From an uncultured Clostridia bacterium (GTDB taxonomy: Bacteria > Bacillota > Clostridia > Christensenellales > Borkfalkiaceae), in the NCBI GenBank assembly GCA_945949395.1, contig CAMFEK010000004.1, positions 26,960 to 90,959 of the forward strand: a DNA stretch of 64,000 bases, read 5' to 3'. Position 1 is the first letter of the stretch; each line of letters opens with the position of its first letter. Both the position numbers and the translations under genes were made by a program. Positions 1,820-22,061 of the stretch are shown piece after piece. The notes under the pieces were generated by a model. The model was given only the letters and a program-made list of their open reading frames with translations, searched no databases and was not told the origin of the DNA.

Positions 1820-1927
1820 ATGCAAAGGCGCTGCCTTTGAAGAATACGTGAAATTTCGTCTACCGCTATTGACGGGAGGTCTCCCTTTATTTTCGCGAAA
1901 TCATCTGAAAAAGATTATAGGAAGTAT

Positions 1928-1980
1928 TTTTTACAGTTTGTGCCGAGATTATGGAAGAGAGAGAATTTTTGTATTATGAT
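1928..1980 (+). promoter_or_regulatory. LytTR-type box and promoter of the acetylesterase gene
   Basis: The box TACAGTTTGTGCC (1932-1944) fits the published AgrA/LytTR half-site pattern [TA][AC][CA]GTTN[AG][TG]. It lies 20 bp before a weak -35 (TGGAAG, 1952-1957), with 17 bp to the -10 TATGAT (1975-1980). The same geometry recurs at four other promoters of this region, and the weak -35 suggests activation. Confidence 0.6.
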
Positions 1981-2008
1981 TCTGTAAAAGAAAAATAAGG
2001 AGAAGAAT

Positions 2009-2947
2009 ATGAGACTCTTAAAAATGTTTTTCAAGATCGCTGCTTTAGCGGTAGCTGTCGTGATGAGTTTGAGTTTGTTTGCTTGCGAAAACGGCGCTAT
2101 CGATTCCGACGAACAGGAAGGAAACGAGGAAAACGTATACGATCTGATCTTATTCACCGGTCAGTCGAATATGGTCGGCAGAGAAACGGAACGTTATCCC
2201 GTAGAGATCCCCGAAGGAATGGCTTACGAGTACAAAGCGTCTACGAATAAGCTTTATCCTGTACGAAATCCGGCAGGAGAGCCTTTTGGCTCGTTGGAAT
2301 CTTCCTCCGGTTCGAGCATTCTCCCCCGTTTCGTTGAAAAATACGTGGAGACGACCGGTCGTAAAGTCATTGCGCTACACGCAGGCTGTGGAGGCAGCTC
2401 CGTCAACCGCTTTGTAAAAGGAGCCGACGTCGGGAACGATATTATGAAGAAGGTCGATGCTTGTACGACGTATTTACAGGAGAATAACTATACGATCGGT
2501 AAATGCTTTTATCTCTACTTTCAAGGCTGTACCGACGTTTCGATGTCGAGCGAGTATTACGAAAAATTATTCTTAAAATTCCATACCGAGCTGAAGAATC
2601 ACCTGGACTATGAGTTCGGGGCACAAATCTTTACGGGGGAAGATAAGGACAATCTTTCACAAGAGCTTATCGAAAACGTCCTCCGCATCGACGGCGTCAA
2701 GAGTAAAATGGCGAGAGAACACGACGATCTCATCGTCTGCAATAAGCAAGCCGCCGTATACTTTGTGGAAAATCCCGAATATATGAGGGAGGATAATCTC
2801 CATTATAATACGCAAGGACTGTTAAAAATTGCAGAGGATAGTTGTGACGTGGTGTTGGATTATCTTGGCTTTGGTGATCCGAGCAAAAAGGGAATCGATC
2901 CCGAAACTTATCTTTCCGAACCCGTCTTTACCGATTTCGCAAAATAA
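2009..2947 (+). CDS. Lipoprotein acetylesterase, SASA/SGNH (sialate O-acetylesterase-like) family
   Basis: A 312-residue secreted lipoprotein. Residues 1-26 form a signal peptide with lipobox LFAC and lipidated Cys26. From about residue 44 the SASA domain (CE6-like carbohydrate esterases) is evident. It has GQSNM with nucleophile Ser53, a GGSSVN block, FQGCTD, and the C-terminal EDNLH with Asp262/His265 completing the triad. The family removes O-acetyl groups from glycans such as sialic acid or xylan. The ribosome binding site is AAGGAGAAG. The promoter carries the same box as the LytTR regulators and the GH3 operons, so it probably belongs to that regulon as a cell-surface deacetylase. Confidence 0.85.
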   Translation: MRLLKMFFKIAALAVAVVMSLSLFACENGAIDSDEQEGNEENVYDLILFTGQSNMVGRETERYPVEIPEGMAYEYKASTNKLYPVRNPAGEPFGSLESSSGSSILPRFVEKYVETTGRKVIALHAGCGGSSVNRFVKGADVGNDIMKKVDACTTYLQENNYTIGKCFYLYFQGCTDVSMSSEYYEKLFLKFHTELKNHLDYEFGAQIFTGEDKDNLSQELIENVLRIDGVKSKMAREHDDLIVCNKQAAVYFVENPEYMREDNLHYNTQGLLKIAEDSCDVVLDYLGFGDPSKKGIDPETYLSEPVFTDFAK

Positions 2948-2982
2948 GGCGGATAGATCCATTAAAAAATTTCGCGAAGAAA

Positions 2983-3035
2983 AAACGACGAAATTTGCCA
3001 AATAAGTAGATTTCTAAGGCAAAATATAGTATCAT
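2983..3035 (+). promoter_or_regulatory. LytTR-type box and promoter of the first response regulator
   Basis: The box AAACGACGAAATTTGCC (2983-2999) is followed by -35 TAGATT (3007-3012), 17 bp, and -10 TATCAT (3030-3035). The start codon at 3042 is only six bases after the -10, so the mRNA is predicted to be leaderless. The box also overlaps one arm of an inverted repeat (AAATTTCG 2967-2974 with CGAAATTT 2989-2996). Confidence 0.6.
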
Positions 3036-3041
3036 GCAGTC

Positions 3042-3743
3042 ATGTTGAAAATAGCGATCGTTGAAGATAATAAAACAGAATTAAACGATTTAAAGAGTCT
3101 TTTAGCTTCGTATCAGGAAGAGAAGAAGGTCGATTTCAGCGTGGAGAGCTTTGAAAGGGGAGAGGATCTCTTATCCCGTTCCGACTTCTCCTACGACCTT
3201 CTTTTTCTCGATATCGAACTGCCCGGTAGGAACGGCATGGACGTTGCGCGAAAGATACGGGAAACCAACGGCAACGTTGCGATCATCTTCGTCACCTGCG
3301 TGACGGCGCTCGCCGTGGAGGGCTACTCCGTGGATGCGTTCGATTATATCGTAAAGCCGATCGAAAAATATCCCTTCTTTACGACGATGATGCGAGTGAT
3401 AAAAAATATCGAGCGCAAAGGAAGCGATAGGATCATACTCTGTACGCCGGAAGGATACGTGTACCTGAATACGAATCAAATTTCCTATATTGAATCGTTC
3501 GGTCATTCTATCGTATATCATGCGGAAGGAAAGGAATATCGAGAATGGACGTCCCTTGCAAAGCCGGAAAAAATATTAGGCGCGAAGGGCTTTTATCGGA
3601 TCAGTAAATCTTTTTTGATTAACCTTCGCTACGTACAAAAAATCGCGGGAGACGAAGTATACGTCGCAGGGGTTCCTATCAAGATCGGTAAGACGAAAAA
3701 GAAAGATTTTCTCACGAAACTCAATATCTATTTCAGCGTCTGA
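3042..3743 (+). CDS. LytTR-family response regulator (AgrA/VirR type), first copy
   Basis: A 233-residue cytoplasmic transcription regulator. Residues 1-125 form the receiver domain: acidic pocket Glu8/Asp9, phospho-acceptor Asp57 in LLFLDIELP, and the conserved Lys in YIVKPIEK. Residues about 135-233 form the LytTR DNA-binding domain, including the ISYIESFGHS and FYRISKSFLINL motifs. No Shine-Dalgarno precedes the ATG. The promoter geometry places +1 at or next to the A of the ATG, so translation is probably leaderless. A second regulator and a histidine kinase follow, and the gene's own promoter carries the putative LytTR box, implying autoregulation. Confidence 0.9.
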   Translation: MLKIAIVEDNKTELNDLKSLLASYQEEKKVDFSVESFERGEDLLSRSDFSYDLLFLDIELPGRNGMDVARKIRETNGNVAIIFVTCVTALAVEGYSVDAFDYIVKPIEKYPFFTTMMRVIKNIERKGSDRIILCTPEGYVYLNTNQISYIESFGHSIVYHAEGKEYREWTSLAKPEKILGAKGFYRISKSFLINLRYVQKIAGDEVYVAGVPIKIGKTKKKDFLTKLNIYFSV

Positions 3744-3762
3744 TCGGTCTTTCAGGAAATAA

Positions 3763-3814
3763 AATCGACCGATTCTGTCAGCATATTGACTTTTTTCTCG
3801 TTTTCTGTCATAAT
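3763..3814 (+). promoter_or_regulatory. LytTR-type box and promoter of the second response regulator
   Basis: The box AATCGACCGATTCTGTC (3763-3779) is followed by -35 TTGACT (3786-3791), a 17-bp spacer and -10 CATAAT (3809-3814). This places +1 near 3821. Confidence 0.65.
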
Positions 3815-3845
3815 TACGATATATCATGAGACGAGAATGGATAGG

Positions 3846-4559
3846 ATGAAATTTGCGATTGTAGACGATGAGAAGTTAGAATCTGAAGAGTTAAAGAAAA
3901 ATTTAGAAGAGTACTTTCAAACAAGAGATACAGAATGTCATGTAGCTCTTTTTTCGGACGTGCTCTTTTTTCTGTCCGATTATCGTTTTCAGTTCGATTG
4001 CGTCTTTATGGATAACGATATGCCGGGGCTGAACGGGATCGCAGGCAGTAAAAAACTTCGCAGTATGGATCCCAACGTTCCCATTGTGTTCGTTACAAAA
4101 ATGGAGCGGTACGCCGCAGACGGCTATGAAGTAAACGCCGTGGAATATCTTGTGAAGCCATACTCCATAGAAGGATTTCATCGTATGATCGCTCACGTGG
4201 AAAAAGTCATTCAAATGAATAGGAAAAAACAGGATTTTTTGATCCTTACGACGCAGGATGCGTCCATCAAGATCCCTTATTCTTCTCTTTATTATGCAGA
4301 GGTTGAGAAACATAACGTCATCTATCATACCGAATACGGTACGTATTCAGTAAGGGGAAGCATGGCGGCAACGAAGGCGATGCTTCCGAATGATTTGTTT
4401 GCGTTATGCAATTCGGGATATCTCGTTAATCTTGCATACGTAACTTTTATCGGGCAAAACTACGTGCAGGTGGGGACGGAGAAACTTGGCGTCTCCCGCG
4501 CAAAGAAAAAAGCGTTTATCGAGGCAATGCATAGGTTCGTAGAGGGGGAAAACGTATGA
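3846..4559 (+). CDS. LytTR-family response regulator, second copy
   Basis: A 237-residue paralogue of the preceding regulator. The receiver domain has Asp7/Asp8 and phospho-acceptor Asp56 (VFMDNDMPG), and a LytTR domain follows from about residue 140 (SLYYAEVEKHNVIYH, FALCNSGYLVNL). The frame is open further upstream, but the promoter at 3786-3814 starts transcription near 3821 and excludes starts before that. I chose the ATG giving the family-typical MKFAIVDDE; ATG 3837 is the alternative. A seven-codon frame (3826-3849) ends in an ATGA overlap with this start, which may couple translation. The kinase gene overlaps its stop by 4 nt. Confidence 0.88.
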   Translation: MKFAIVDDEKLESEELKKNLEEYFQTRDTECHVALFSDVLFFLSDYRFQFDCVFMDNDMPGLNGIAGSKKLRSMDPNVPIVFVTKMERYAADGYEVNAVEYLVKPYSIEGFHRMIAHVEKVIQMNRKKQDFLILTTQDASIKIPYSSLYYAEVEKHNVIYHTEYGTYSVRGSMAATKAMLPNDLFALCNSGYLVNLAYVTFIGQNYVQVGTEKLGVSRAKKKAFIEAMHRFVEGENV

Positions 4560-5917
4560 ACAGTGAAGCGTTATTTTACTATATCCGATTGCAGACGATC
4601 TTCTGTTTATTCCTTGCCAACGCTCTGTTCGTCGTCTTTTTAGAGAGAAAGGATAGGTTTGCGCTTCGTGCTATCGTCACGGTCGCGGGCGGGATCTTAT
4701 TGGCGATCCTCATTGCCTATCTCAATATACGGCTCTTATATTTTTTGATCGATCGAAACGTACGGACAACGCAGGCATTCCCGTGGATCAATATTGTTTC
4801 TCATTTTATTCTGTATTTATATAGTCTGTTCGGACTGTGGTTCTGTTTTCGGGAAAAGATGATCACGCTCATCCACGTCAGTATCGCCGCGTATGCAACG
4901 GATAATATCGCCATTTTACTGATTAGTTTGTGTTCGCTGATCGATCCGAGAGTGAGTATCGATATCGGACAATCCGTCGGCGTGATCAACGTATCCGCTT
5001 TAATTCTGAGCGTGGGGATCACGTATTCTATTATCTATTTTACCTTTGCAAGGGTATTAAAAGATTTCAAACAGGTGGCGGAATTTAATCCCTCCGGAAC
5101 GAGGGTTTTATTTTTCGTCATGCTGATCGTCGTGATCATTCTTCGCAGTTACGTCTCTAACTTAAAAATCGAGAATAAGCAATTTTTTGCAATCGTCTGC
5201 ATTCTCAATATCATCGTTTGCTTTGTCATTTTGGCGGAACAATTTATGACGACGAAATATATCATTCAGAAGCGAGAGATGGAGACGATCATACATCTAA
5301 AGGAAATGCAGCTTGCGCAATACGAGTTTACGAAGGAAAACATCGAGCTCATTAACTTAAAGTGCCACGACATCAAGCATCAGTTGCTTGCCTTAAAGCA
5401 AAACGGCTCCATCGACGAGGAGTATATGAAGAAACTGAACGATTCCGTTTCTTTCTATGACTCTATCGCAAAGACGGGTAATCAAGCTCTGGATACCGTT
5501 ATTACGGAAAAGAAACTGTACTGCGCGAAAAATAAGATCCCTATGACGGTGATCGCCGATGGAGAACAGGTGTCTTTTCTCGCCGTCTCGGATCTCTATT
5601 CCCTCTTTGGCAATGCGCTCGACAATGCGATCGAATACGTTTCCCGATTAGAGCCGGAAAAGAGGAGCGTCAAATTGATCGTGAAAAAGGCGGGAAATTT
5701 CGTCAGCATCTGCACCTATAATTATTATGAGGGCGGTGCGTTAAAGCTCGTGAACGGACTTCCCAAAACGAGTAAACCCGATTCAAGTTTGCACGGATTC
5801 GGCATGAAATCCATCAAACTGATCGCCGAGCAATACGGGGGAAGCATCCATATCCGTACGGAAGAAAATCAATTCATTTTAAGCGTTCTCTTGCCTCTTC
5901 CAAATCCCAAAAATTAA
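4556..5917 (+). CDS. AgrC-like sensor histidine kinase (HPK10, GHKL ATPase)
   Basis: A 453-residue membrane sensor kinase. Residues 10-235 hold about seven hydrophobic helices, the peptide-sensing layout of AgrC/ComD-type kinases. A coiled-coil linker follows (residues about 240-275), then the H-box CHDIKHQL and a GHKL ATPase domain with N-box GNALDNAIEY and G-box HGFGMKSI. It should phosphorylate Asp57/Asp56 of the two adjacent LytTR regulators. The ATGA overlap with the second regulator indicates co-translation. No AgrB/AgrD pair is in the window, so the ligand is unknown. Confidence 0.88.
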   Translation: MNSEALFYYIRLQTIFCLFLANALFVVFLERKDRFALRAIVTVAGGILLAILIAYLNIRLLYFLIDRNVRTTQAFPWINIVSHFILYLYSLFGLWFCFREKMITLIHVSIAAYATDNIAILLISLCSLIDPRVSIDIGQSVGVINVSALILSVGITYSIIYFTFARVLKDFKQVAEFNPSGTRVLFFVMLIVVIILRSYVSNLKIENKQFFAIVCILNIIVCFVILAEQFMTTKYIIQKREMETIIHLKEMQLAQYEFTKENIELINLKCHDIKHQLLALKQNGSIDEEYMKKLNDSVSFYDSIAKTGNQALDTVITEKKLYCAKNKIPMTVIADGEQVSFLAVSDLYSLFGNALDNAIEYVSRLEPEKRSVKLIVKKAGNFVSICTYNYYEGGALKLVNGLPKTSKPDSSLHGFGMKSIKLIAEQYGGSIHIRTEENQFILSVLLPLPNPKN

Positions 5918-5940
5918 ATCCCGTTTCGACGGGATTTTTT
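5916..5940 (+). terminator. UUCG-loop terminator after the two-component operon
   Basis: AAATCCCGT-TTCG-ACGGGATTT followed by a T run. The stem overlaps the kinase stop codon. Confidence 0.92.
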
Positions 5941-5951
5941 TTGCGTGTTGA

Positions 5952-6003
5952 AAACGACAGTTTTTGCCTTTTTTATTGTAAATAGCTCGCATTATATTAA
6001 AAT
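5952..6003 (+). promoter_or_regulatory. LytTR-type box and promoter of the first GH3 operon
   Basis: The box AAACGACAGTTTTTGCC (5952-5968) lies 20 bp before -35 TTGTAA (5976-5981), with 16 bp to -10 TAAAAT (5998-6003). Confidence 0.6.
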
Positions 6004-6052
6004 TTGAAACAGGCTACAGAGTGGTCAAAGAAAAAAATAAATTAAGGAGAAC

Positions 6053-8986
6053 ATGATGAGAATTTTCAAAACGAAGGCATGGAAATGCGTTTCTATGGTT
6101 TCCATTGCTTTGTCGGCTTTGCTCGTCGCGGGTACGACGGTTGCGAATAATTACTCTCCTATGGTAAACGGCTTTCTCGGTCTTCAGACGAGTAAGGTGG
6201 TAGATAGTGAGAACGGCAATTCGCAATACTATACCTCGGACTATGCAAATCTGGAAGAAATGTACCAAAATAAGGTAAAGCACATTCGAGAAGAAGCTCG
6301 TGAAGGCACGGTACTTCTCAAGAATAACGGCATCTTACCTCTCGCAAAGGGCAAAAAAGTAGGCGTTCTTGGTGCAAACAATTTAATGTTTGACGCAACT
6401 TCGGGCGGCGGTGGCTTTCACAGCGACGAAGTGGACGCCAAAAAGACGGGTCTCATAGACGCGTTAAAGTTTGACGGACTCACCGTTACCGAAGAGAAAA
6501 GTGAATTCGCTTCCGCGGACGCCGTTATCGTCGTCTTAGGTCGTCATTGGGGGGAAGGCAGCGATATGCCGGTCGGCAACCTCATCCTAACGCAGGATGA
6601 AGTCGAGCGTATCAACACCGCAAAAGCTGCCAATAAAAATATGATTTTCCTTGTCAGCGGTGACTATTCCATTGAAATCGGCGCCTACGTCAAGGACTGC
6701 GCCGCCATCGTAAAGGCGGGCAATATGGGCTTCCGTGGGGCTTACGGTCTTGCCGACGTCCTCACAGGCGTCGTTTCTCCTTCGGGTAAACTCGTTGATA
6801 CTTGGGCGGCAAGCTCCTATTCCTCTCCCGCAATGGAGAATTGGGGCGACTTTGAATATGCGAATAAGAATAAAATCATGGCGTCTCAGGCAAATAAATA
6901 CGTCTCCTACAACGAAGGCATCTATACCGATTATCGTTATTACGAAACGAGATACGAAGATTGTGTCCTCTCGCAGGGGAATGCCAATGGGAGCGCCGGC
7001 GTACAGAAGAGCAGCGGCGGTTGGAGCTATTCCTCCGAAGTGCTCTATTCCTTCGGTTTCGGCTTGAGCTATACTACGTTTGAAAAGAAGATCGAAGACG
7101 TTTCCTTCCATCCGGAACAGAGAACGGCGACTGTCACGGTCAACGTCAAAAATACGGGTAACGTGGACGGGAAAGAAGTTGTAGAAGTCTATGCTCAGAC
7201 GCCCTATACGCAGTACGATAAGCAGAATAAGGTGGAAAAATCTTCCGTTCAACTTGTCGGGTTTGAGAAGACGTCAACCCTAAAGGCGAACGGTGGAGAG
7301 GAAACGGTCAAGGTGGAGATCCCCATGCAATGGCTCGCTTCCTTCGACTACACGGGAGCCAAGACGTATATCATGGATGCGGGAGACTATTATTTCTCTA
7401 TCGGCAACGGGGCTCACGATGCGCTCAATAATATCTTAGAAGTTAAGGGAAAAACGGTCGCTAATGGGATGACGGCAAAGGGGAATGCTTCTCTCGTATA
7501 TTCCTGGAAGCAAAACGCCCTGGATACGACGACCTACTCCACTTCCGTCTATACGGGCGCAAAAATCGATAATCGTTTCGATGACGCCGACTTGAACTAT
7601 TGGATAAACGGAAAAGTGACCTATCTTACGAGAAGCGATTGGCAGGGTACCTATCCCGTTACGGTAAAACTCTCCGCGTCGGACGATATGATTGCTTCCC
7701 TCAACGATACCAAAAAGTACGAGAACGGAAAGTGGAACGACTTAAAGGATCGCGTCAAGGAACAAGAGGTAGAATGTCTTGAACTCTACGACGACGCTTC
7801 CGTCAACAGCTATCTCGCCGCGAACGCTGCGGAAAATGTTGTGGCTATGCGTGGTAAGGACTACGACGATCCTGCTTGGGAAACAATTCTAAACCGCCTG
7901 AGCATTTACGAAATGTCCCGTTTGGTAGCGGAAGGGAGATACTTCATCAACGCTTGTCCCTCCGTTACCTTTGCACAGGGGACGGGTGGTGACGGCCCCG
8001 TCGGTATCCTCAAAAATTATCGTTACTACTCCATCGATCAGACGACGGGGGAAGCGGTTGAACTCAAAAAGGATCAAACCATGCAGGACGGCATCACCAA
8101 CGACGTCGTGACGGCTACTCTCCTCGATGCCGGTATGTACACTTCCGAATGTGTTCTTGCCGCTACGTGGAATAAAGATTTGGCGTTTGAAAGAGGAAAG
8201 TTTATCGGCGAAGACGGTCTTTACACCGGTACTTCCTATCTTTGGGGTCTTGGTACCAACTTACATAGAACGCCTTACACCGGTCGTATGGCGGAATACT
8301 TCTCAGCCGACGGCGTATTGAACTCCATGATCGGCGCACCCGTCACCCGTGGCAGCAAAGAGAAGGGCGTCGTTCTCGTCGTAAAACACTTTGCCGGCAA
8401 CGAACAGGATCAAAACCGTATCGGCGTTGCTACCTTTACCAACGAGCAGGCGTTTCGAGAAAATTATCTTCGCGCCTTTGAAGGTATCGCTACTTACGGT
8501 GAAATGCAGGGTATCATGACGGCATATAACCGTATCGGTATTTTGTCTTGTACCGCGGAATACGACCTGATTACGGGCGTATTGAGAGAAGAATGGGGCA
8601 GCACCGCTTATACGATGTCTGACTTGAACTCTCCTACCAGCGGTCTTTACGACGGCAACGCCGCTATCGTAGCGGGTCTTTCCAATTTCCTCAATAACGG
8701 CAATTTCAATGCAACCAGCGGTTCCTACGCCAACTGTACGTTAAATCCTAAGAATATCGGTGCGGATCCTCTCCTTTTGGCGGCGGCAAGAGAAGCGAGC
8801 CATAGAATTTTGTATAACTTCATCCACTCCAATCAGGTAAACGGAATATCAGAAACCTCTCACGTAGAATTTATCACACCTTGGTGGCAGCCTACTCTCA
8901 TTACGCTCGACGTGTTATGCGTCTTGGCGGCGGTTGCCTCTTCGGCGCTCTACGTAATTTCCGCAAATAGAAAGGAGGAAAACTAA
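6053..8986 (+). CDS. Membrane-anchored GH3 glycosidase with inverted domain order (GH3-A)
   Basis: A 977-residue predicted beta-glycosidase of family GH3 acting outside the membrane. An N-terminal helix (residues 10-31) is followed by a conserved EGTVLLKNNGILPL start of the GH3 C-domain, then an Fn3-like domain with the YSFGFGLSYTTF motif (about 345). The (beta/alpha) barrel comes last, with KHF at 778-780 and nucleophile Asp857 in TMSDLN. A second helix (949-970) ends in a basic tail. Normal GH3 order is barrel first. Reversed order is known in a few Firmicutes enzymes such as Butyrivibrio BglA. ATG 6056 is equally good, with better spacing from AAGGAG. The substrate is unknown. Confidence 0.85.
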   Translation: MMRIFKTKAWKCVSMVSIALSALLVAGTTVANNYSPMVNGFLGLQTSKVVDSENGNSQYYTSDYANLEEMYQNKVKHIREEAREGTVLLKNNGILPLAKGKKVGVLGANNLMFDATSGGGGFHSDEVDAKKTGLIDALKFDGLTVTEEKSEFASADAVIVVLGRHWGEGSDMPVGNLILTQDEVERINTAKAANKNMIFLVSGDYSIEIGAYVKDCAAIVKAGNMGFRGAYGLADVLTGVVSPSGKLVDTWAASSYSSPAMENWGDFEYANKNKIMASQANKYVSYNEGIYTDYRYYETRYEDCVLSQGNANGSAGVQKSSGGWSYSSEVLYSFGFGLSYTTFEKKIEDVSFHPEQRTATVTVNVKNTGNVDGKEVVEVYAQTPYTQYDKQNKVEKSSVQLVGFEKTSTLKANGGEETVKVEIPMQWLASFDYTGAKTYIMDAGDYYFSIGNGAHDALNNILEVKGKTVANGMTAKGNASLVYSWKQNALDTTTYSTSVYTGAKIDNRFDDADLNYWINGKVTYLTRSDWQGTYPVTVKLSASDDMIASLNDTKKYENGKWNDLKDRVKEQEVECLELYDDASVNSYLAANAAENVVAMRGKDYDDPAWETILNRLSIYEMSRLVAEGRYFINACPSVTFAQGTGGDGPVGILKNYRYYSIDQTTGEAVELKKDQTMQDGITNDVVTATLLDAGMYTSECVLAATWNKDLAFERGKFIGEDGLYTGTSYLWGLGTNLHRTPYTGRMAEYFSADGVLNSMIGAPVTRGSKEKGVVLVVKHFAGNEQDQNRIGVATFTNEQAFRENYLRAFEGIATYGEMQGIMTAYNRIGILSCTAEYDLITGVLREEWGSTAYTMSDLNSPTSGLYDGNAAIVAGLSNFLNNGNFNATSGSYANCTLNPKNIGADPLLLAAAREASHRILYNFIHSNQVNGISETSHVEFITPWWQPTLITLDVLCVLAAVASSALYVISANRKEEN

Positions 8987-8987
8987 T

Positions 8988-9371
8988 ATGTCAACTGAAA
9001 AAAGAAAAAAGGGCCTGCCCGTTACCTCTTCCGTTTTCGCCTTCCTCAGCTTGTTCTGTTATTGGCTCTTGACGATCGTATCGAAGGAATCGGGCGAAAA
9101 TACCACGTTGGTACTCATTCTGCTCGGCATCTCTTTTGCGGTGCATTTGGTCAACGTCTTTACGGACGTATTCAAGATCCCGACGCTTCTATGCTATGCG
9201 TTTGACTTTATCGGTCTGTTTGGCGCACTTGCCGGAAGAGTGAGCTACTTGGCATTCTTCTTTTGCGGAGATATTATGAATACGGGGCTTTCCGTATATC
9301 TACTTTCCGTCGTTCTATACAGCATTATTTCCATCGTACTTGATAGCATTCAGGTCGCAAAAAACAAATAA
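8988..9371 (+). CDS. Four-helix membrane protein, partner of GH3-A
   Basis: A 127-residue hydrophobic protein with four predicted helices (about 12-31, 40-59, 63-84, 99-118) and a basic N-terminus. It starts one base after the GH3-A stop. No known domain is recognised. It resembles the 143-residue protein that overlaps GH3-C: both carry an IPTLxxxxAF motif at the start of helix 3. It also resembles in layout the N-terminal 130 residues of GH3-B. The recurring pairing and the fusion imply that it works in a complex with the membrane GH3 enzymes, perhaps as a stabilising or export subunit. Confidence 0.75.
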   Translation: MSTEKRKKGLPVTSSVFAFLSLFCYWLLTIVSKESGENTTLVLILLGISFAVHLVNVFTDVFKIPTLLCYAFDFIGLFGALAGRVSYLAFFFCGDIMNTGLSVYLLSVVLYSIISIVLDSIQVAKNK

Positions 9372-9386
9372 TAAGGGGTAAATTTT

Positions 9387-10724
9387 ATGAGAAAAACTTC
9401 TAAAAAGATTTTATGTTGCTTGATGGCGGCATCCATGCTGGCATGTGCGGTAACGCTTACAGGTTGCACCGTCAACATCGTGATTCCCAATATCGTCATC
9501 GGAACCAACGGTACCAATATCAATACCGACCGTCCTTCTAACGATTCTAATGGCGATACGCCCGTCGTACAGACCAAATACAAGACGCCGACGAAGAGCG
9601 TAGAATACTGGCAGGATAAGACGCCCGAAGAACAGGTGAAGGAGAAGAGAAACGATAAGGTAGTTGCTTATCAGTTCTATCTCGAAAACGTAAATATCAA
9701 CGGCGAAAACACTCCTAAATATTATAGCGTGGTCATGAACCTCTACGAGGATGGTTTTGCCTCCATAGCGCAGTATAATACGGATAGTAAATACGTAACG
9801 GACTATTACGGTTACTGGACGAGTATAAACGACGAGCATTTGTACGTCGGTTTTACGAACCATACCAACAGTACGCAACCGGGCGTCATCTACGGTATTT
9901 CCTATTCCTTTGAACTCGTCGAAGCGGACGGCGCGTTTGAAACCTTCGGCATCAATTTAGCCCTTGGCTTTGGAGAAGGCGGCGTGTACGTTAGAAACTA
10001 CGACGTTTCCGGTGATGGCAAGGTGACTTTTGCAACGCTTACCGATTTCGAAAAGAAAATCGGATACGTGAGAGCGGACGCTCCTGCCGAGGAGACTCCT
10101 GCCGAAGCTAAAATCCTTTTCTCCTTCGATTCCGGTAACGAGAATAACTTGATGGATATCTATGACGACGGTACTTACGTATTTACCTTTAAGTCTGTCG
10201 GCTTGACCGATAAGGGGACTTGGGCATGGGAGAACGGTAAATTCACCATAACGGATAAAGAGGGGCATACCTGCGAAGCTACCAAGGAAGAGGATAATTC
10301 TCTCAAGCTCGAATACACCGAATACGTTACCAGCAAGGGTAAGGTAAAGAGAACTTTCGTCTGCGAACATTCTATTTGGAGCGCCGCGCTTGACGGAAAG
10401 ACAGAGACGGAAGCAAGCGTGCTCTTTGCCTTTACTTCGGATAGCGAGAACTATCTTCTCGACGTGTATACCGATGGTACCTACGTCTTTACGTTTAAGA
10501 CGGCGGGACTCACGGATAAGGGTACATGGACGTGGCAGGGTTGGAATTTTGCCTTGACGGACAGCAAAGGAAACGTGACCGAAGCCACGAAAGGGGAAGA
10601 TCATTCGCTAAATCTGACCTATGTAGAACATAACTTGAGCAACGGCAGAGTTACGAGAGATTTCACTTGTCCCAGTTCCGTTTGGGGACCTGCCTTTAAC
10701 GGTCAAGGCGACTATCAAAAATAA
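9387..10724 (+). CDS. Lipoprotein with two tandem ~100-residue repeats
   Basis: A 445-residue lipoprotein: signal peptide, then lipobox LTGC at residues 24-27, then a Thr/Asn-rich linker and a beta-rich region. Two homologous repeats follow, at about 241-335 and 343-437. Each reads (I/V)LFxFxSxxEN...DGTYVFTFKxxGLTDKGTW with a conserved C-terminal SxW. The repeats look like small beta-barrel or sandwich modules. No named family is recognised. It is the third gene of the GH3-A operon (16 nt after the four-helix protein, SD AAGGGG), suggesting a surface glycan-binding or enzyme-docking role. Confidence 0.75.
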   Translation: MRKTSKKILCCLMAASMLACAVTLTGCTVNIVIPNIVIGTNGTNINTDRPSNDSNGDTPVVQTKYKTPTKSVEYWQDKTPEEQVKEKRNDKVVAYQFYLENVNINGENTPKYYSVVMNLYEDGFASIAQYNTDSKYVTDYYGYWTSINDEHLYVGFTNHTNSTQPGVIYGISYSFELVEADGAFETFGINLALGFGEGGVYVRNYDVSGDGKVTFATLTDFEKKIGYVRADAPAEETPAEAKILFSFDSGNENNLMDIYDDGTYVFTFKSVGLTDKGTWAWENGKFTITDKEGHTCEATKEEDNSLKLEYTEYVTSKGKVKRTFVCEHSIWSAALDGKTETEASVLFAFTSDSENYLLDVYTDGTYVFTFKTAGLTDKGTWTWQGWNFALTDSKGNVTEATKGEDHSLNLTYVEHNLSNGRVTRDFTCPSSVWGPAFNGQGDYQK

Positions 10725-10813
10725 TACGTAGAGCATACGTTTCTTCTTCCGGAAAGGGTCGTTGCTCTTTTCGTGAAACGAGCCTGAGAAGCCGGACGAA
10801 GATTATACTTTCC

Positions 10814-10855
10814 TCTTGCGAATGAGTTCCGCATCCCACGGGACTCATTCCTTTT
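10814..10855 (-). pseudogene. Relic of an IS3-family transposase 3' end
   Basis: Read on the minus strand, this stretch encodes KGMSPVGCGTHSQE, matching KGMSPVQYRTHSQD at the end of the IS3 transposase remnant at 17.3 kb. The DNA arms CTTGnGAATGAGTTC and GGACTCATTCCTTTT are shared between the sites. The same bases form a hairpin (AATGAGTTCC/GGGACTCATT) with a T-rich tail on the plus strand, so the relic may now serve as terminator of the GH3-A operon. Confidence 0.5.
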
Positions 10856-10872
10856 ATACTTATGAGAAATGG

Positions 10873-10925
10873 AAACGACCGATTTTGACGCTTGTGTTGA
10901 ATTTATGCCGTAATTCTTCTAAAAT
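10873..10925 (+). promoter_or_regulatory. LytTR-type box and promoter of the second GH3 operon
   Basis: The box AAACGACCGATTTTGAC (10873-10889) is followed by -35 TTGAAT (10897-10902), exactly 17 bp, and -10 TAAAAT (10920-10925). Confidence 0.65.
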
Positions 10926-10975: not shown

Positions 10976-11665
10976 ATGAAGAACATCAAAAAAGCAATCG
11001 CCCTCGTTTTAGCGTCGGCATCCCTCGCAACCGTAATGGTAGGCGCAACTTCTTGCGGGAAAAAGATCGACGGCACTTATACCGTAGTCGTGGATTCCGT
11101 TTCTTACTTCAACAACGCCGAAGTAAAATCCGATCTCGCAGCGGATCCCGGCAAGTACGTAAAACTCGACAAACTCTATACCTACCTTAACGGTAACATC
11201 GCCGAAAAGGATGGAGATAACTATGTAATCAAAACGAGCGGTACGGGCGTTGCGGATTTCTATACGGCAAAACTTGACCTCAGCGGTTCTACCTACACGC
11301 TCACCAAGACGATCAAGGTTGACACGACTGCCGCTACCTATTCGTCTTTAGGCTTGGCTGAAGATAAGACGGCTTGCATGGAACTCGTATTCAGCGGCTC
11401 TTTCACAAGCGAAAAGGAAACCGTAACGTTAGCAAAGCCCGAAAAAGTGACGGGCAACATGACGCTCGCAGGAGCAGGCGCAGCGTATACGAGATTTGCT
11501 GCCAACTTTGAAGAAATCGACGTGTCTTCTGCCGAATACGACGATATCATGTATCCCGGTAGGTTCTTCAACTACTTTGATTCCTTGTATTTCGTAGATA
11601 CGACAAAGTATGAAGATATGACGGTAGTGGTAAGCACCGACACGATGACCTTCTCCGTTCAGTAA
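10976..11665 (+). CDS. Secreted lipoprotein of unknown function
   Basis: A 229-residue protein with a Lys-rich start, a hydrophobic segment and lipobox-like ATSC ending near residue 27. The mature part is rich in Thr, Ser, Val and aromatic residues in alternating patterns, suggesting a beta-sandwich. No family is recognised. It is the first gene after the boxed promoter at 10.9 kb, followed by the SGNH lipoprotein and GH3-B. The 194-residue lipoprotein ahead of GH3-C occupies the same position in its operon. SD is TTGGAGGAA. Confidence 0.65.
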   Translation: MKNIKKAIALVLASASLATVMVGATSCGKKIDGTYTVVVDSVSYFNNAEVKSDLAADPGKYVKLDKLYTYLNGNIAEKDGDNYVIKTSGTGVADFYTAKLDLSGSTYTLTKTIKVDTTAATYSSLGLAEDKTACMELVFSGSFTSEKETVTLAKPEKVTGNMTLAGAGAAYTRFAANFEEIDVSSAEYDDIMYPGRFFNYFDSLYFVDTTKYEDMTVVVSTDTMTFSVQ

Positions 11666-11724: not shown

Positions 11725-12729
11725 ATGAAAAAAACGATCGCTCTTTTATTGACAGGGATCTGTTCTTTGACGATCTTTGCTTCTTGTCAAAAAGTAGTAG
11801 AAAAGAAGTTGGATCACTTGGAGGTCGTAAACGGTGCCGATACCTTGATTTATGAGGAAGGGGAATTCTTCAGCACGGCAGGCATGAGAGTGGACGCCTA
11901 TTATTCGGACGGCACGAAGGAGGAAGACGTAGCGTTTGAAACGCCGAATACGGAATTGGTACGAGACAAACAGTACGTGAAATTGACGTATCAGACGAAA
12001 TCGATCAACTATCCCATCACGGTTACGTATAAAGGCAATAACGAAAAGTACGCCGTAGGTAGCGTACAAAAGACGCCCTCTTTGTTAGAGGGAAAGACCA
12101 TCTTTTTCCTTGGCTCTTCCGTTACGTATGGACACGGCTCGCAGGGAGAAGCCTTCCCTGACTTTTTAGCGGCTAAGGATGGGTGTCATTCGATCAAGGA
12201 AGCCGTTTCGGGTACCGCTCTTGCCGATCGGGAAGGAATGGGAAGCGGCGAATCCTATATCACGCGCCTGGAGAAGTATTTACAGCGAGAGGATAAGGCG
12301 GAAACGCTCGATCTGTTCGTCTGTCAGCTTTCCACGAACGATATCAAAAAGCCGGAATATTTCGGCGAGGTGACGGCAAACGACGTATACGACCGTTCCG
12401 AATTTGATCGGACGACTTCGATTGGAGCCTTGGAAAACATTCTTTCTTTGGTAAAAGAAACGTGGGATTGTCCCGTATTGCTCTATACGAGCAACGACAT
12501 TAAAAATGAAAAGTACGCTAAAATGGTTACGCTCGCGCATCAGGTAGCGGATAAGTGGGATAGCGTAACGATTTTGGACTTGTATCACGATAAGGAATTT
12601 AATACCATCACCAAGGAAGAGGAGATCCTGTATTTGACGGATAACGTACATCCGACGAAAGCCGGCTATCTCTTGTGGTGGTTGCCGAAATTCGAAACGA
12701 CCATTTCAGATTTGATCGGTGAAGATTGA
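11725..12729 (+). CDS. Lipoprotein esterase: bacterial Ig-like domain plus SGNH hydrolase
   Basis: A 334-residue lipoprotein. Lipobox FASC places the lipidated Cys at 21. Residues about 29-103 resemble bacterial Ig-like domains (YxxGExF...G(M/V)xVxAxYxDGT). From 123 an SGNH/GDSL esterase follows: block I LGSSVTYG with nucleophile Ser132, block III LSTND, and block V DNVHPTKAGY with the catalytic Asp/His. It probably removes acyl groups from glycans at the cell surface, like the SASA lipoprotein at 2 kb. The gene lies between the unknown lipoprotein and GH3-B in one operon, with SD AAGGAG. Confidence 0.8.
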   Translation: MKKTIALLLTGICSLTIFASCQKVVEKKLDHLEVVNGADTLIYEEGEFFSTAGMRVDAYYSDGTKEEDVAFETPNTELVRDKQYVKLTYQTKSINYPITVTYKGNNEKYAVGSVQKTPSLLEGKTIFFLGSSVTYGHGSQGEAFPDFLAAKDGCHSIKEAVSGTALADREGMGSGESYITRLEKYLQREDKAETLDLFVCQLSTNDIKKPEYFGEVTANDVYDRSEFDRTTSIGALENILSLVKETWDCPVLLYTSNDIKNEKYAKMVTLAHQVADKWDSVTILDLYHDKEFNTITKEEEILYLTDNVHPTKAGYLLWWLPKFETTISDLIGED

Positions 12730-17991: not shown

Positions 17992-20583
17992 ATGAGCAAA
18001 GAAAATTTTTTTGAAACTGAATTACCTGAAATTAAAGCGGTTGAAATAAGCCTAGTTAGTAAAATAATGATGAAGGCGTATTCAGAGTTAGGACTTGATG
18101 AAATTCAGTTGATAGGAGATGCTGAGTTCGCGTTGTATTTTCGCAATAAAGAGGTAATCCCTTGCAGTTGTACAGGAAATAAGGGTGCGGATAAATATAG
18201 ACTTAAATTAGATAACAAAGCCAAAGAAAGCTCTAAGCAATTTTTAAAGTTGGAACCTACTAGAATGATAAGGGAGACTTCATCCTTTGAGATGGAAAAA
18301 AGGTTGGATTCTGTTCTTTTAGATATGTATAAGGTTAAGATTGAGACTGAGATTGATAAAACGAGCGATGTCGTAAATGTTTTAATCGTGAATCCGTCTT
18401 TTTATTTTATTGATGAATGGATTAGATATTTCTATGAAAACGATAGATATAGTAAAAGATTATGTACTGGTTTTATCTTAGAGACAAGAGGTCTATGGGA
18501 ATATTTAAGATTATTAAGAAAAGCCTTCGCTCCCCATAGGAATGTCTTTTTTCGATCTGCTGATGAAATTCCAGAATTGAAAAGTAAAATGAATGGGATG
18601 AAAAATCTCTATTATTTTCTGGGTTGCTTCTTTTATCGGAATAAGTTCAATTCTATTGCAAATGAAAGAATAAAGAGTATTTTTCGGTGTTGCGATGAAG
18701 TGATTGCAACATATGAGTATGAAAAAATATGTGAAGATGCTAATGAAAATCTTTGGACGATATCGAAAAACGAAGGAATGTCGGTTGCATCGATTTGGAA
18801 AGTACATAAATACCTGAAAGCTGAAAATTGTGAAAAAATAGTTGTATCGTTGAAAAAAGATAGCGAAGTTAATCATCCAATAGAAGTATTAGTTTCAAGT
18901 ATTGAGCATAAAAAATATTTTAGTTTAAGATTGGGTCAAGTAGTTGATTTCCTAAAACTGGTGGATTCGAGAAGTTTTGATCAGCTGTTGGAGAAAAATG
19001 AGGAAATCGAGAAAAGAAATAAATTTGTTTTCTCTTATTCCAAAGAGATTAAAATGAAATATACGATTGATAAACAGGAAGGAAGAAATAATAGATTGGG
19101 TATTTATTATCATTACTTGCTTCCGCAACCTTTGGAAGAAGGGTCTAAAAGGAAAATAAGAAAGACGAAAACAAAGTTTTACTATGGATTGAAAGAGAAA
19201 GACCTTGAAGAAAAGGAAAAGTATTTTTTAGAAGAAATAGAATCTTGCAGAGGGGAGATTGTTGATGACATTTTTCGAAATGCAACAGGATTGACAAGAG
19301 AAGAGCTTTATAACTTGAATGATAAAGAGAGATTTCAGAGTTGTTTGCAGGAGATTGGGAAATTATCTTTCAAAACTATTTGGTATTGTTTTCAGGACTT
19401 ATTTGTTGCATGTGATAAGTATGATAATGAATTGACGAAAAAGGTTTTAGAAAATAAAGGAATTGCAGACTTAGGAATTTCTAATTTTAATTACGAGAGT
19501 TTTATACAGGAAATAGGTAAGCTCGCAGAACAAGATTTGAGTGAATGGATAGATAATTCTTTGGATTGTATCATTGCTGTATTATTTGAATACAAGGTCT
19601 TAAAGGATGATTTTTTTAATGGGGATGAAGATCAAGTTCATTCAAATGTTAGGGCTCGCTACATTCTTAAGTGTTTAAGAAAATCTGCGTTCACCAAGGC
19701 GGAGTTAAATAGATTTGTCGGTATTGTTTTCCAAAAAGATGAAGAGGGCAACTATGAAATCGTTAAAAATCAAGTCTTACTTTTTTCCGTATTTAAGATG
19801 TATTTGGGAATGAAAAATGGTGAAATTTTGGCTCTTAAATGGAAGGATATATCGAAGTGCGAGGAAATAGATATTAGTAAAATTGAGATTTACAAGACCA
19901 TAAAGAATGATGAGGTAGTATCCTATCTTGAATTAAAAGAATTAAATAAATGTAGACCAATTCCATGTTCCAAAATCTTACGATATTTCCTGAGAGAACG
20001 ATATAGGTTGATAAAAAAAGTTTTTCATAAATCTGATGATATTTTAAAAGAAGAATACATTTTTATGAGTGAAGAGGAGATTCGGATCAGGTTGGATGAA
20101 ATCCTGAAAGGATATAAGCATGTGCTTAAAGAAATGAACTTTTCCGATCTTTTTATAGCGTTGATGACTTCGGACTTGGAAACGGAAGAGACAAAAACTG
20201 TAAATTTAAATTCGGGAAGAAAGGATATCGCGAGAGCAAATTTTCAGTATTACTGTCGAGAGGTTGGAATGACGGAGGGACAAATCGGTTATTTGTTAGG
20301 ATTAAAGATAGGGGACCCTTTGAATCGTAATTATTGCGATTATTCAAATGAAATTATGTTGTACAATTTGTATATTATGATGTCGCGGTGGTGGCCAATG
20401 TTGCCGGAGATAGCTAAAAAGAAAATTGTGTCGATTTATTTGAATGGAACGGAATTCAAAAGTAAAGAAATTTTTGTTCAAAAGGAAAAGACTGTTTTAA
20501 GATTTGATGTTAATTTTAAGTCTGACTCAAACATACGTATCATATCGGAATCAAATTATGGAAATAAAGGAGAAGTTTTTTAA
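17992..20583 (+). CDS. Large tyrosine-recombinase-like protein with degenerate active site
   Basis: An 863-residue protein. The N-terminal 550 residues are unrecognised, apart from a possible helix-turn-helix near 255-275 (MSVASIWKVHKYL). Residues about 590-820 resemble the tyrosine recombinase fold. YLGMKNGEILALKW aligns with the box I motif (T)GLRxGEL(L)AL, but Lys608 replaces the catalytic Arg. ARANFQYY aligns with the box II LRHTFAT with Arg748 kept, and LLGLK replaces the usual LGH. This suggests an accessory or inactive recombinase subunit. The next gene follows without a gap. The coding is very AT-rich, unlike the flanks. SD is AAGGAGA. Confidence 0.55.
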   Translation: MSKENFFETELPEIKAVEISLVSKIMMKAYSELGLDEIQLIGDAEFALYFRNKEVIPCSCTGNKGADKYRLKLDNKAKESSKQFLKLEPTRMIRETSSFEMEKRLDSVLLDMYKVKIETEIDKTSDVVNVLIVNPSFYFIDEWIRYFYENDRYSKRLCTGFILETRGLWEYLRLLRKAFAPHRNVFFRSADEIPELKSKMNGMKNLYYFLGCFFYRNKFNSIANERIKSIFRCCDEVIATYEYEKICEDANENLWTISKNEGMSVASIWKVHKYLKAENCEKIVVSLKKDSEVNHPIEVLVSSIEHKKYFSLRLGQVVDFLKLVDSRSFDQLLEKNEEIEKRNKFVFSYSKEIKMKYTIDKQEGRNNRLGIYYHYLLPQPLEEGSKRKIRKTKTKFYYGLKEKDLEEKEKYFLEEIESCRGEIVDDIFRNATGLTREELYNLNDKERFQSCLQEIGKLSFKTIWYCFQDLFVACDKYDNELTKKVLENKGIADLGISNFNYESFIQEIGKLAEQDLSEWIDNSLDCIIAVLFEYKVLKDDFFNGDEDQVHSNVRARYILKCLRKSAFTKAELNRFVGIVFQKDEEGNYEIVKNQVLLFSVFKMYLGMKNGEILALKWKDISKCEEIDISKIEIYKTIKNDEVVSYLELKELNKCRPIPCSKILRYFLRERYRLIKKVFHKSDDILKEEYIFMSEEEIRIRLDEILKGYKHVLKEMNFSDLFIALMTSDLETEETKTVNLNSGRKDIARANFQYYCREVGMTEGQIGYLLGLKIGDPLNRNYCDYSNEIMLYNLYIMMSRWWPMLPEIAKKKIVSIYLNGTEFKSKEIFVQKEKTVLRFDVNFKSDSNIRIISESNYGNKGEVF

Positions 20584-22032
20584 ATGAATCTTAAAAGATT
20601 GACTGTAAAAGAGTTGGAAAAGATGTCACTTGGAATTCCAAGCACAGAAGGTGTGTGTACGGTTCATAAATTTTGCTATGATAATTGGATCGAAATTAAA
20701 AATCGAAAAAGAAAGTGGATAGCTGAATCTGTATGCGAAACATATTTGAGATACTATAATGAAATATTTAATAAATTACCGGAACTGGAAAGTAAAGATA
20801 TTTCGGATTACGTAGCAAGCGATTTTGAAGATGCGATTCGTAAAATTCAAAAAGAAAATTTACTGATATATGATGAAGAATCAAAGGGAAAGATCCATAT
20901 CTGTAAACGACTGGTTCGAGATTTAATTGATTATGCCGTTTATCTTGGAAAATGTGAAGATATTTTGCGTTATTCTGAATTTTTTGCCGACGTATTGGGT
21001 GAGGAAAAAACGAAAACGATTATCACGCAAAGATTCGCGAAAAGAAGTGAAAAAATCAAAAGAAGTTTTACAGCGAAACAAGAAAAAAAGATCGCTTCGT
21101 TTTTACTGAATGACAATATTGTTTATGGGGAAGGTGTAAATTACGGACTTCTGCTTATGTATGCACTTGGGTTAAGAAATGCGGAGGCTTGTGCTATAAA
21201 ATTTTCTAACTTCTTTACTTTTGAATCCTATCCCGATATGGTCGTGTGCGTCGTTTATACGAGTGCAAGAGATGGAAAGGTAAGGAACGGTGGTAAAACA
21301 TCGAATATGCCTCGTTTTATTGTTGTTCCGTCAAAGGTATGGAGACTGATTCAAAAAAGAATTGATTATATTGAGTCAAAAATAGGAGGAGAGAATGTGG
21401 AAGATTTCCCCGTCGCTTGTTCTTCAGAAGGATTTAAGATTCATCTGCGTTCGAATGAATTAACGGATGGTGCTGAAATCTTATTTGAAGAGGTTGGTAT
21501 TACGTCTGCAGATTTGGTCGTAGTAGCAAAGGAAATGAATCAAGAGGAAATAGAATATATTTTATCCGAAAAAGATCCTACCGCATATTTGTTTAGAAGA
21601 AATTTTGCAACGCAAATGGCGAGTATCGGTATGGAAGAAGAAATGATACGCTATTTGATGGGGCATAGAATGGGGGAAGAATATAAAAGGAATTTCTATT
21701 CGAATGAAGAGAAAGTATATGAAATTTCATTGATTATGTCAAGACGTGCACTTGTAAATGACGGCGTCTCTTTTGAAAAGTATTATGATAGAAATACCGA
21801 AGAAGTTTTTGAGTTTTATTCCGGGGATAAAGTAAGTATTAAAGAAAAACAAGGGGATTCCTTCACGGTTACCGTTGAAACAAATGAACCGAATGACGGT
21901 ATTCAAGTTAGTATTTTTGGAGAATGTAAAATACCAGAGGAAAAGATTCAAGTTAGGTATAAGAAATGTAGTAAATTTATACAACCAGCAAAAGCTTTGG
22001 AAAAATATTACGAAATATATAACAAAGAATAA
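20584..22032 (+). CDS. Tyrosine recombinase, partner of the preceding gene
   Basis: A 482-residue site-specific recombinase. Residues about 20-150 look like a SAM-like core-binding domain, and 165-400 form the catalytic domain. Box I has Arg198 in ALGLRNAEA. Box II is YLFRRNFAT, with Arg338 present but Tyr335 where the usual His of HxxR sits. Then come MGH and a candidate nucleophile Tyr in KRNFY, spaced two residues further than usual. A C-terminal extension of about 80 residues is beta-rich and unusual. It is translated directly after the 863-residue protein (SD AAGGAG inside its end). Its place next to the guaA end suggests that it integrates there. Confidence 0.75.
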   Translation: MNLKRLTVKELEKMSLGIPSTEGVCTVHKFCYDNWIEIKNRKRKWIAESVCETYLRYYNEIFNKLPELESKDISDYVASDFEDAIRKIQKENLLIYDEESKGKIHICKRLVRDLIDYAVYLGKCEDILRYSEFFADVLGEEKTKTIITQRFAKRSEKIKRSFTAKQEKKIASFLLNDNIVYGEGVNYGLLLMYALGLRNAEACAIKFSNFFTFESYPDMVVCVVYTSARDGKVRNGGKTSNMPRFIVVPSKVWRLIQKRIDYIESKIGGENVEDFPVACSSEGFKIHLRSNELTDGAEILFEEVGITSADLVVVAKEMNQEEIEYILSEKDPTAYLFRRNFATQMASIGMEEEMIRYLMGHRMGEEYKRNFYSNEEKVYEISLIMSRRALVNDGVSFEKYYDRNTEEVFEFYSGDKVSIKEKQGDSFTVTVETNEPNDGIQVSIFGECKIPEEKIQVRYKKCSKFIQPAKALEKYYEIYNKE

Positions 22033-22061
22033 GAAAGACAGAAATTATTCCTGTCCTTCTT
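22031..22061. terminator. Bidirectional terminator between convergent operons
   Basis: AAGAAAGACAG (22031-22041) and CTGTCCTTCTT (22051-22061) pair with one mismatch. The hairpin overlaps the 3' ends of both convergent genes. Confidence 0.45.

What the first reader, a model, noticed from the sequence alone, without database searches (positions are those of the whole stretch)
1928..10925. Five promoters with the same upstream box: a LytTR regulon
Boxes at 1928, 2983, 3763, 5952 and 10873 fit AAACGACnGwTTTTGnC. In each, the -35 begins 19-20 bp after the G of GAC and the -10 lies 42-43 bp after it. They precede the acetylesterase, both LytTR regulators, and both GH3 operons, and no other promoter in the window has one. 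The first copy fits the known LytTR half-site pattern fully. This ties signalling, esterase and membrane GH3 enzymes into one circuit with autoregulation.
Basis: partly seen in the sequence, partly recalled or inferred. Interest (0 to 1): 0.78.

Follow-up and report, generated by a model that had tools for sequence, protein, structure and literature searches.

The report
LytTR-controlled membrane GH3 enzyme regulon
A bacterium appears to switch on surface sugar-cutting enzymes and esterases together through one shared DNA switch next to its own sensor genes, and some relatives carry many similar sensor-enzyme sets.

Summary
The genome holds three more such sites. In leave-one-out scoring 7 of 8 sites beat every other position of 284,640 held bases, both strands; the acetylesterase site has two above it. 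In another species' orthologous locus the matrix finds four sites: before RR1, RR2, an esterase and the same lipoprotein. Geometry is that of LytTR operators. An autoregulated LytTR regulon is very likely; binding is untested. More widely, LytTR genes sit near membrane GH3 genes (12 of 13 here, 39 of 43 in one relative). In other modules, promoters after the kinase carry LytTR-like repeats (23 of 44; control 20 of 218), but regulator promoters do not (9 of 64). A LytTR-GH3 link was noted for Butyrivibrio in 2010 (PMC2914790, passage).

The parts
1912..1980 (+). Operator-promoter S1 (left half 1912-1920, box 1928-1944, -10 TATGAT 1975-1980) before the SASA acetylesterase
   Evidence: leave-one-out 19.9, two non-site positions higher; right half ACAGTTTGT fits all 8 informative positions of the LytTR consensus (consensus recalled)
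2009..2947 (+). SASA-family acetylesterase (312 aa), lipoprotein-like N-terminus
   Evidence: Pfam PF03629, 1.7e-9; N-terminus read
2967..3035 (+). Operator-promoter S2 (box 2983-2999, -10 TATCAT 3030-3035) before RR1; -10 ends 6 nt before the ATG
   Evidence: no non-site position scores as high
3042..3743 (+). RR1, receiver + LytTR response regulator
   Evidence: PF00072, PF04397; clade with C15 and G004 RR1, support 0.99
3747..3814 (+). Operator-promoter S3 (box 3763-3779, TTGACT-17-CATAAT) before RR2-HK
3846..4559 (+). RR2, receiver + LytTR response regulator (likely start 3846; open frame from 3786)
   Evidence: PF00072, PF04397; clade support 0.99; start judged by eye
4556..5917 (+). GHKL sensor histidine kinase with several hydrophobic segments
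   Evidence: PF14501, 4.5e-23; hydrophobicity scan
5936..6003 (+). Operator-promoter S4 (box 5952-5968, -10 TAAAAT 5998-6003) before the GH3a operon
6053..8986 (+). GH3a, domain-permuted GH3 with hydrophobic segments near both ends
   Evidence: PF01915 before PF00933; nucleophile Asp column kept; ends printed
8988..9371 (+). Small membrane protein (127 aa) in the GH3a operon
   Evidence: no Pfam match; hydrophobic segments
9387..10724 (+). Lipoprotein-like 445 aa protein in the GH3a operon
   Evidence: no Pfam match; signal and Cys read by eye
10857..10925 (+). Operator-promoter S5 (box 10873-10889, TTGAAT-17-TAAAAT) before lip229-GDSL-GH3b
   Evidence: counterparts at C15:11400- and L159:10462
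10976..11665 (+). lip229, lipoprotein-like protein of unknown function conserved with the two-regulator system
   Evidence: no Pfam match; 62% and 37% identical to the C15 and G004 copies
11725..12729 (+). GDSL-type esterase
   Evidence: PF13472
12762..16262 (+). GH3b, 1166 aa membrane GH3
   Evidence: PF01915, PF14310, PF00933; 60% identical to the G004 copy, 77.5% to the C15 copy

Best explanation
The five boxes are the right-hand, better conserved part of tandem LytTR operators. Each operator is two 9-bp half-sites (left near TTWYRG, right near ACCGATTTT) 12 bp apart, ending 9-10 bp before the -35. One or both of the neighbouring LytTR regulators (RR1, RR2), phosphorylated by the GHKL kinase in answer to an unknown outside signal, bind as a dimer centred near -60. 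They recruit RNA polymerase to promoters, two of which have a weak -35. This switches on the acetylesterase, RR1, RR2-kinase, the GH3a operon and the lip229-GDSL-GH3b operon together, with positive feedback on both regulators. Shown here: the sites, their geometry, their non-randomness, and their conservation before the same genes in a paralogous and an orthologous locus. Inferred: operon limits, binding, dimer make-up, activation, and the signal (perhaps a glycan fragment, from the gene content).
For: Alignment and information profile of 8 sites: conserved left half, box, -35 and -10, with near-random spacer and flanks (mean pairwise identity box 0.68, left half 0.56, spacer 0.28, upstream 0.26). 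Leave-one-out specificity. Of 81 9-mer offsets, the LytTR half-site consensus fits best at +5 and second best at -16, 21 bp apart. A scan of 1,758,792 positions in loci of relatives with the matrix built from G000 sites only: four of the nine best hits lie in 16-kb L159, before RR1, RR2, an esterase lipoprotein and the lip229 relative; the lip229 one had not been seen before. RR1 and RR2 form clades across C4, C15 and L159, support 0.99 each. Published LytTR operators have the same geometry (passages).
Against: No binding or expression data. The half-site pair test compares aligned sites with unaligned shuffles, which favours the observed value. The left and right halves resemble each other only weakly: matrix self-similarity at lag 21 is not outstanding, and lag 23 is higher at the left element. 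By hand, the right half of S2 meets 3 of 8 consensus positions and the left half of S6 2 of 8 (strings). S1 is outscored by two unrelated positions. In L159, two of the four sites (6090, 9204; score 21.1) are outscored by five positions in other loci. The box was not seen before RR1 of the C15 copy.
Confidence: 0.85

Rival explanations
1. The box is the operator of some other, non-LytTR regulator that happens to control the same operons.
For: The right half of S2 and the left half of S6 fit the recalled LytTR consensus poorly and the two halves are weakly alike.
Against: Geometry (9-12-9, 9-10 bp to the -35, centre near -60) is that of LytTR operators. The box tracks the RR1/RR2 lineage into another species. 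Promoters after the kinase in other LytTR modules carry LytTR-like repeats at the same place.
Confidence: 0.08
2. The sites are alike only because the promoters were copied with the genes (segmental duplication), without regulation.
For: S5/S6 and the regulator promoters do sit before homologous genes in duplicated loci.
Against: The five window sites mostly precede unrelated genes; half-sites and promoter boxes are conserved, spacers and flanks are not; the pattern persists in a species whose GH3b is 60% identical.
Confidence: 0.03
3. RR1 and RR2 compete on the same operators, one activating and one repressing, as PlnC and PlnD do (a form of the best explanation, not an alternative to it).
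For: Two LytTR regulators with one kinase, both regulator promoters carrying the operator of the targets; PlnC/PlnD precedent (PMC2714321, passages), where the right repeat is also the better conserved one.
Against: RR1 and RR2 are only 32% identical, against 59% for PlnC/PlnD (abstract), so they may differ in specificity or form a mixed dimer on the two unlike half-sites.
Confidence: 0.35

Closest known systems
Butyrivibrio proteoclasticus LytTR regulators beside secreted GH3 with C-terminal TM helix (PMC2914790; passages)
   Same: LytTR response regulator close to a membrane-anchored GH3 gene
   Different: Three loci, noted in one sentence; the passages seen give no operator, two-regulator form or expansion. 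Here 13 LytTR matches in this genome, up to 43 in a 2.0-Mb relative, and defined operators
Lactobacillus plantarum PlnC/PlnD bacteriocin regulon (PMC2714321; passages)
   Same: Two co-expressed LytTR-type regulators, promoters sharing 9-12-9 tandem repeats before the -35, autoregulated; right repeat better conserved (that one kinase, PlnB, serves both is recalled)
   Different: Targets are bacteriocin genes under quorum sensing; PlnC and PlnD are 59% identical and the repeat is TACGTTAAT
Staphylococcus AgrCA (PMC4227749; passages)
   Same: LytTR regulator (GHKL kinase partner recalled); operator centred near -60
   Different: agr uses the AgrB/AgrD peptide (recalled); no AgrB match in this genome
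LytTR Regulatory Systems HdrRM/BrsRM (PMC6193735; passages)
   Same: Direct repeats mostly 12 bp apart, most often 10 bp before the -35, positive autoregulation
   Different: Those pair a LytTR regulator with a membrane inhibitor protein; here there are receiver domains and a kinase
Roseburia/E. rectale gpPULs (PMC5320581; passages) and a LytTR gene linked to cellulase genes in Cellulosilyticum (PMC5733062; passages)
   Same: LytTR regulators near glycan-degrading genes: Ros-7 lists RR[LytTR] and HK; the Cellulosilyticum LytTR gene was raised on filter paper and xylan relative to cellobiose
   Different: gpPULs list transport systems and mostly LacI/AraC regulators; no sugar transporter family was matched among the 14 window proteins scanned from 492 to 22032

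Membership tests
LytTR two-component system | Receiver + LytTR response regulator | tested here: met
   PF00072 and PF04397 over cut-off in RR1 and RR2
LytTR two-component system | Adjacent multi-pass GHKL kinase | tested here: met
   PF14501; hydrophobic segments
LytTR two-component system | Two conserved elements 21 bp apart just upstream of the -35 | tested here: met
   Left element and box at fixed distance from -35/-10 in 8 sites; leave-one-out
LytTR two-component system | Both 9-bp halves match the LytTR consensus | tested here: inconclusive
   Means 5.9 and 5.0 of 8 at +5 and -16, the two best of 81 offsets; pair sum 10.9 versus 9.4 at the 99th percentile of (unaligned) shuffles; some single halves fit poorly; consensus recalled
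LytTR two-component system | Regulator binds the operator | not testable with these tools
   needs a DNA-binding assay
agr quorum sensing | AgrB peptide-processing protein | tested here: not met
   No PF04647 match at E<=0.001 in the own genome, a 95.75% complete draft
PlnC/PlnD-type two-regulator regulon | Two LytTR regulators beside one kinase, same operator at the target operons and at their own | tested here: met
   conserved in L159; in the C15 copy seen at RR2 and lip229 but not RR1
PlnC/PlnD-type two-regulator regulon | One activates, the other represses | not testable with these tools
   needs genetics
LytTR Regulatory System (LRS) | LytTR regulator with membrane inhibitor instead of a phosphorelay | tested here: not met
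   Receiver domains and a GHKL kinase are present
Polysaccharide utilization locus | Glycan transporter in the locus | tested here: not met
   No sugar transporter family among the 14 window proteins scanned from 492 to 22032, four of which had no Pfam family at E<=0.001; one TauE-type exporter

The most novel reading that the evidence does not exclude
Some members of this bacterial family run a battery of parallel LytTR circuits, up to about 40 in a 2-Mb genome. Each has its own kinase, its own tandem-repeat operator and its own membrane-anchored GH3 enzyme: a Gram-positive-type counterpart of the sensor arrays of Bacteroides glycan loci. The GH3 may take part in making or presenting the kinase's signal.
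Probability: 0.4. Interest if true: 0.72.

Novelty: new variant of a known kind. Interest (0 to 1): 0.52.

Why it matters
LytTR systems are best known (recalled) for quorum sensing, bacteriocins and virulence. Here one very likely governs surface glycan enzymes, with a defined operator that lets regulon members be called from sequence. The scale (13 LytTR matches in this genome, 43 in one relative) makes these bacteria a natural test of how many parallel kinase-regulator pairs stay insulated, and may help assign substrates in uncultured bacteria by operator.

Tried and rejected
Rejected as further sites: C50:3804- (reads as coding by eye, no matching -10); C7:3219+ (scores 25.3, but is a hairpin with a T-run at a gene end; the only open frames downstream on that strand lie opposite the gene); C2:120611- and hairpin-like hits such as C28:13355- and C1:209795- (by eye).

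Within-module shared boxes: for 53 modules the regulator promoter and the stretch after the kinase were compared with cross-module pairs. 11 of 53 were at or below 0.05 and 3 of 53 at or below 0.01. The 11 include three of this system in G000 (C4 twice, C15 once) and L159, so general evidence for private boxes is modest.

A looser scan that chose promoter and half-sites together put both groups above shuffles (regulator promoters 0.21 and post-kinase stretches 0.36 over the 95th percentile). That mixes promoter strength with half-sites, so I rely, where the promoter is chosen first and regulator promoters are not enriched. One search left out C4 and C15, stretches without a recognisable promoter and identical stretches; related loci (for example L163 and L169) were not thinned, so its p-value is optimistic.

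GH3 as a dead sensor: not supported. The nucleophile column is Asp in 73 of 74 aligned GH3 proteins, the other a gap.

An AgrB-type peptide system: no match. Structure prediction of lip229 was not available.

Not done: a matrix scan of the whole genome (held G000 stretches are 284,640 of 1,955,678 bases, chosen around LytTR and GH3 genes); naming of the organism (nearest named RR1 match by order of the listing: a Candidatus Borkfalkia MAG, 38% identity).
Full report
WHAT WAS CHECKED. The 17-mer AAACGACnGwTTTTGnC is exact at 5952 and 10873, two mismatches off at 2983 and 3763, and six off at 1928 (by hand). With up to three mismatches the window has 10 matches against 6.84 expected, and 14 of 100 shuffles do as well. 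So the string alone is weak evidence.

MORE SITES IN THE SAME GENOME. The window is part of a 1.96-Mb draft genome of 63 contigs. The 17-mer with up to two mismatches has 34 matches, against 11 for the reversed pattern. I read 30 of the 34 contexts, and three of the other four were later scored with the matrix. Besides window sites, two are promoter-type: C15:11400- and C4:4266+, both followed after 7 nt by TTGAAA and then a -10. A search with the -35 letters TTG added, up to three mismatches, gives 15 matches against 4 reversed; three are exact (5952, 10873, C15) and two have two mismatches (C4:4266, and C50:3804, rejected). A further site, C15:13597- before the RR2 copy, came from promoter comparison.

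THE OPERATOR IS BIPARTITE. Mean pairwise identity is 0.68 in the box, 0.56 in the left half, 0.28 in the promoter spacer and 0.26 further upstream. A leave-one-out matrix over left half, box, -35 and -10 ranks seven of eight sites above every other position in 284,640 held bases, both strands; 1928 is beaten by two positions. Two caveats: the sites were picked by likeness, and the held bases are LytTR/GH3 neighbourhoods, 15% of the genome.

LytTR GEOMETRY. Scored against the LytTR half-site consensus (recalled, not from a call), the best of 81 offsets is +5 (5.9 of 8) and the second best is -16 (5.0 of 8). These are two 9-bp halves 12 bp apart, ending 9-10 bp before the -35. Their sum, 10.9, exceeds the 99th percentile of shuffles, 9.4, though shuffling also breaks the alignment. 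Published LytTR operators have this layout: 9-bp direct repeats, mostly 12 bp apart and most often 10 bp before the -35 (PMC6193735, passages), centre near -60 (PMC4227749, passages). In the PlnC/PlnD regulon the right repeat is the better conserved one (PMC2714321, passages), as here. Against this: the two halves resemble each other only weakly, matrix self-similarity at lag 21 is not outstanding, and some single halves fit the consensus poorly.

CONSERVATION. RR1 and RR2 each form a clade with their C15 and G004:C20 (L159) counterparts, support 0.99, in a tree of 68 regulators. The matrix from the G000 sites alone was run over 1,758,792 positions of loci from relatives. Four of its nine best hits lie in the 16-kb L159: first and second, 6866 (before RR2) and 10462 (before the lip229 relative); eighth and ninth, 6090 (before RR1) and 9204 (before an esterase lipoprotein, PF00756). 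Three of these had been seen; 10462 was new. L159 has the order RR1-RR2-kinase-esterase-lip229-GH3b, with GH3b 60% identical to the window's and lip229 37%. This footprint at matching promoters also keeps the theme of esterase plus GH3.

THE WIDER PATTERN. The genome has 13 LytTR matches and 25 GH3 matches. 12 of 13 LytTR matches lie within 8 kb of a GH3, while at most 14% of the genome does; in G014 it is 39 of 43 against at most 39%. In the fetched loci, 53 of 72 LytTR regulators have both a kinase and a GH3 downstream; most of these loci were fetched because they hold a LytTR regulator. Among 101 genomes of the family, 35 have a LytTR match, and counts there run from 1 to 43, so the expansion is patchy. 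Of 67 GH3 proteins over 900 aa, 61 have a hydrophobic segment near the N-terminus, 61 near the C-terminus and 56 both; the catalytic Asp column is kept in 73 of 74. Leaving out C4 and C15, the strongest promoter after the kinase has LytTR-like repeats at the right place in 23 of 44 cases, against 20 of 218 promoters of other genes (p=1.3e-7, related loci not thinned). Promoters before the regulators do not: 9 of 64, p=0.36. So control of the GH3 operon by a LytTR operator looks general, whereas autoregulation is a mark of this two-regulator lineage.

HOW IT PROBABLY WORKS. An outside signal acts on the GHKL kinase; one or both regulators bind the tandem half-sites and activate promoters, two of which (S1, S2) have poor -35 boxes. 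The output is two membrane GH3 enzymes, two esterases and lipoproteins, plus more of both regulators and the kinase. The signal is unknown; no AgrB match was found. Which regulator binds, and whether one represses as PlnD does, cannot be told from sequence.

WHAT IS KNOWN. A LytTR-GH3-TM link is in print for Butyrivibrio (PMC2914790, passages); LytTR regulators near glycan genes also appear for Roseburia (PMC5320581, passages) and Cellulosilyticum (PMC5733062, passages). Four searches of the held library (LytTR with glycoside hydrolase family 3, beta-glucosidase, polysaccharide utilization plus two-component, and glycoside hydrolase plus histidine kinase plus Clostridia) listed 0, 10, 4 and 1 papers. 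I saw passages of three of these papers and only listings of the rest, and found no operator described for such loci. The library lacks most subscription journals, so this is weak evidence of absence.

Noticed in passing
3030-3044; L159 from 6136: The RR1 -10 box ends 6 nt before the ATG in both the window and the G004 orthologue (read, and the frame start), which would give a leaderless or nearly leaderless RR1 message.
   Followed up: partly
L031:3523-6553 (-): In the C15 copy of the system GH3 matches run over two overlapping frames; it may be a broken gene or a draft error. Described only.
   Followed up: no
L032:4340-5110 (+) and 3171-4142 (-): The C4:4266 operator precedes a 256-aa protein of which about 100 residues match GH3b, perhaps a relic of another copy; an esterase-type lipoprotein-like gene lies beside it on the other strand.
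   Followed up: partly
8988-9371 and after other GH3 genes: A small protein (94-157 aa) with two or more hydrophobic segments follows 17 of 67 GH3 genes within 80 nt; function unknown.
   Followed up: partly
17992-23469: Downstream of the cluster: a large protein without Pfam match, a tyrosine-recombinase-type integrase (22393-23469) and a sub-threshold integrase match (20584-22032) suggest a mobile element.
   Followed up: no
L162 (G004:C49), boxes near 6862 and 4705 (-), further match at 7107 (-): A single-regulator module in the same genus has AAACGACC boxes before both regulator and GH3, close to the window box; possible cross-talk or recent divergence.
   Followed up: partly
L137:8307: An Erysipelotrichaceae-labelled MAG carries a perfect ACAGGTTGT-12-ACAGGTTGT repeat before its LytTR regulator, next to two GH3 genes.
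   Followed up: no
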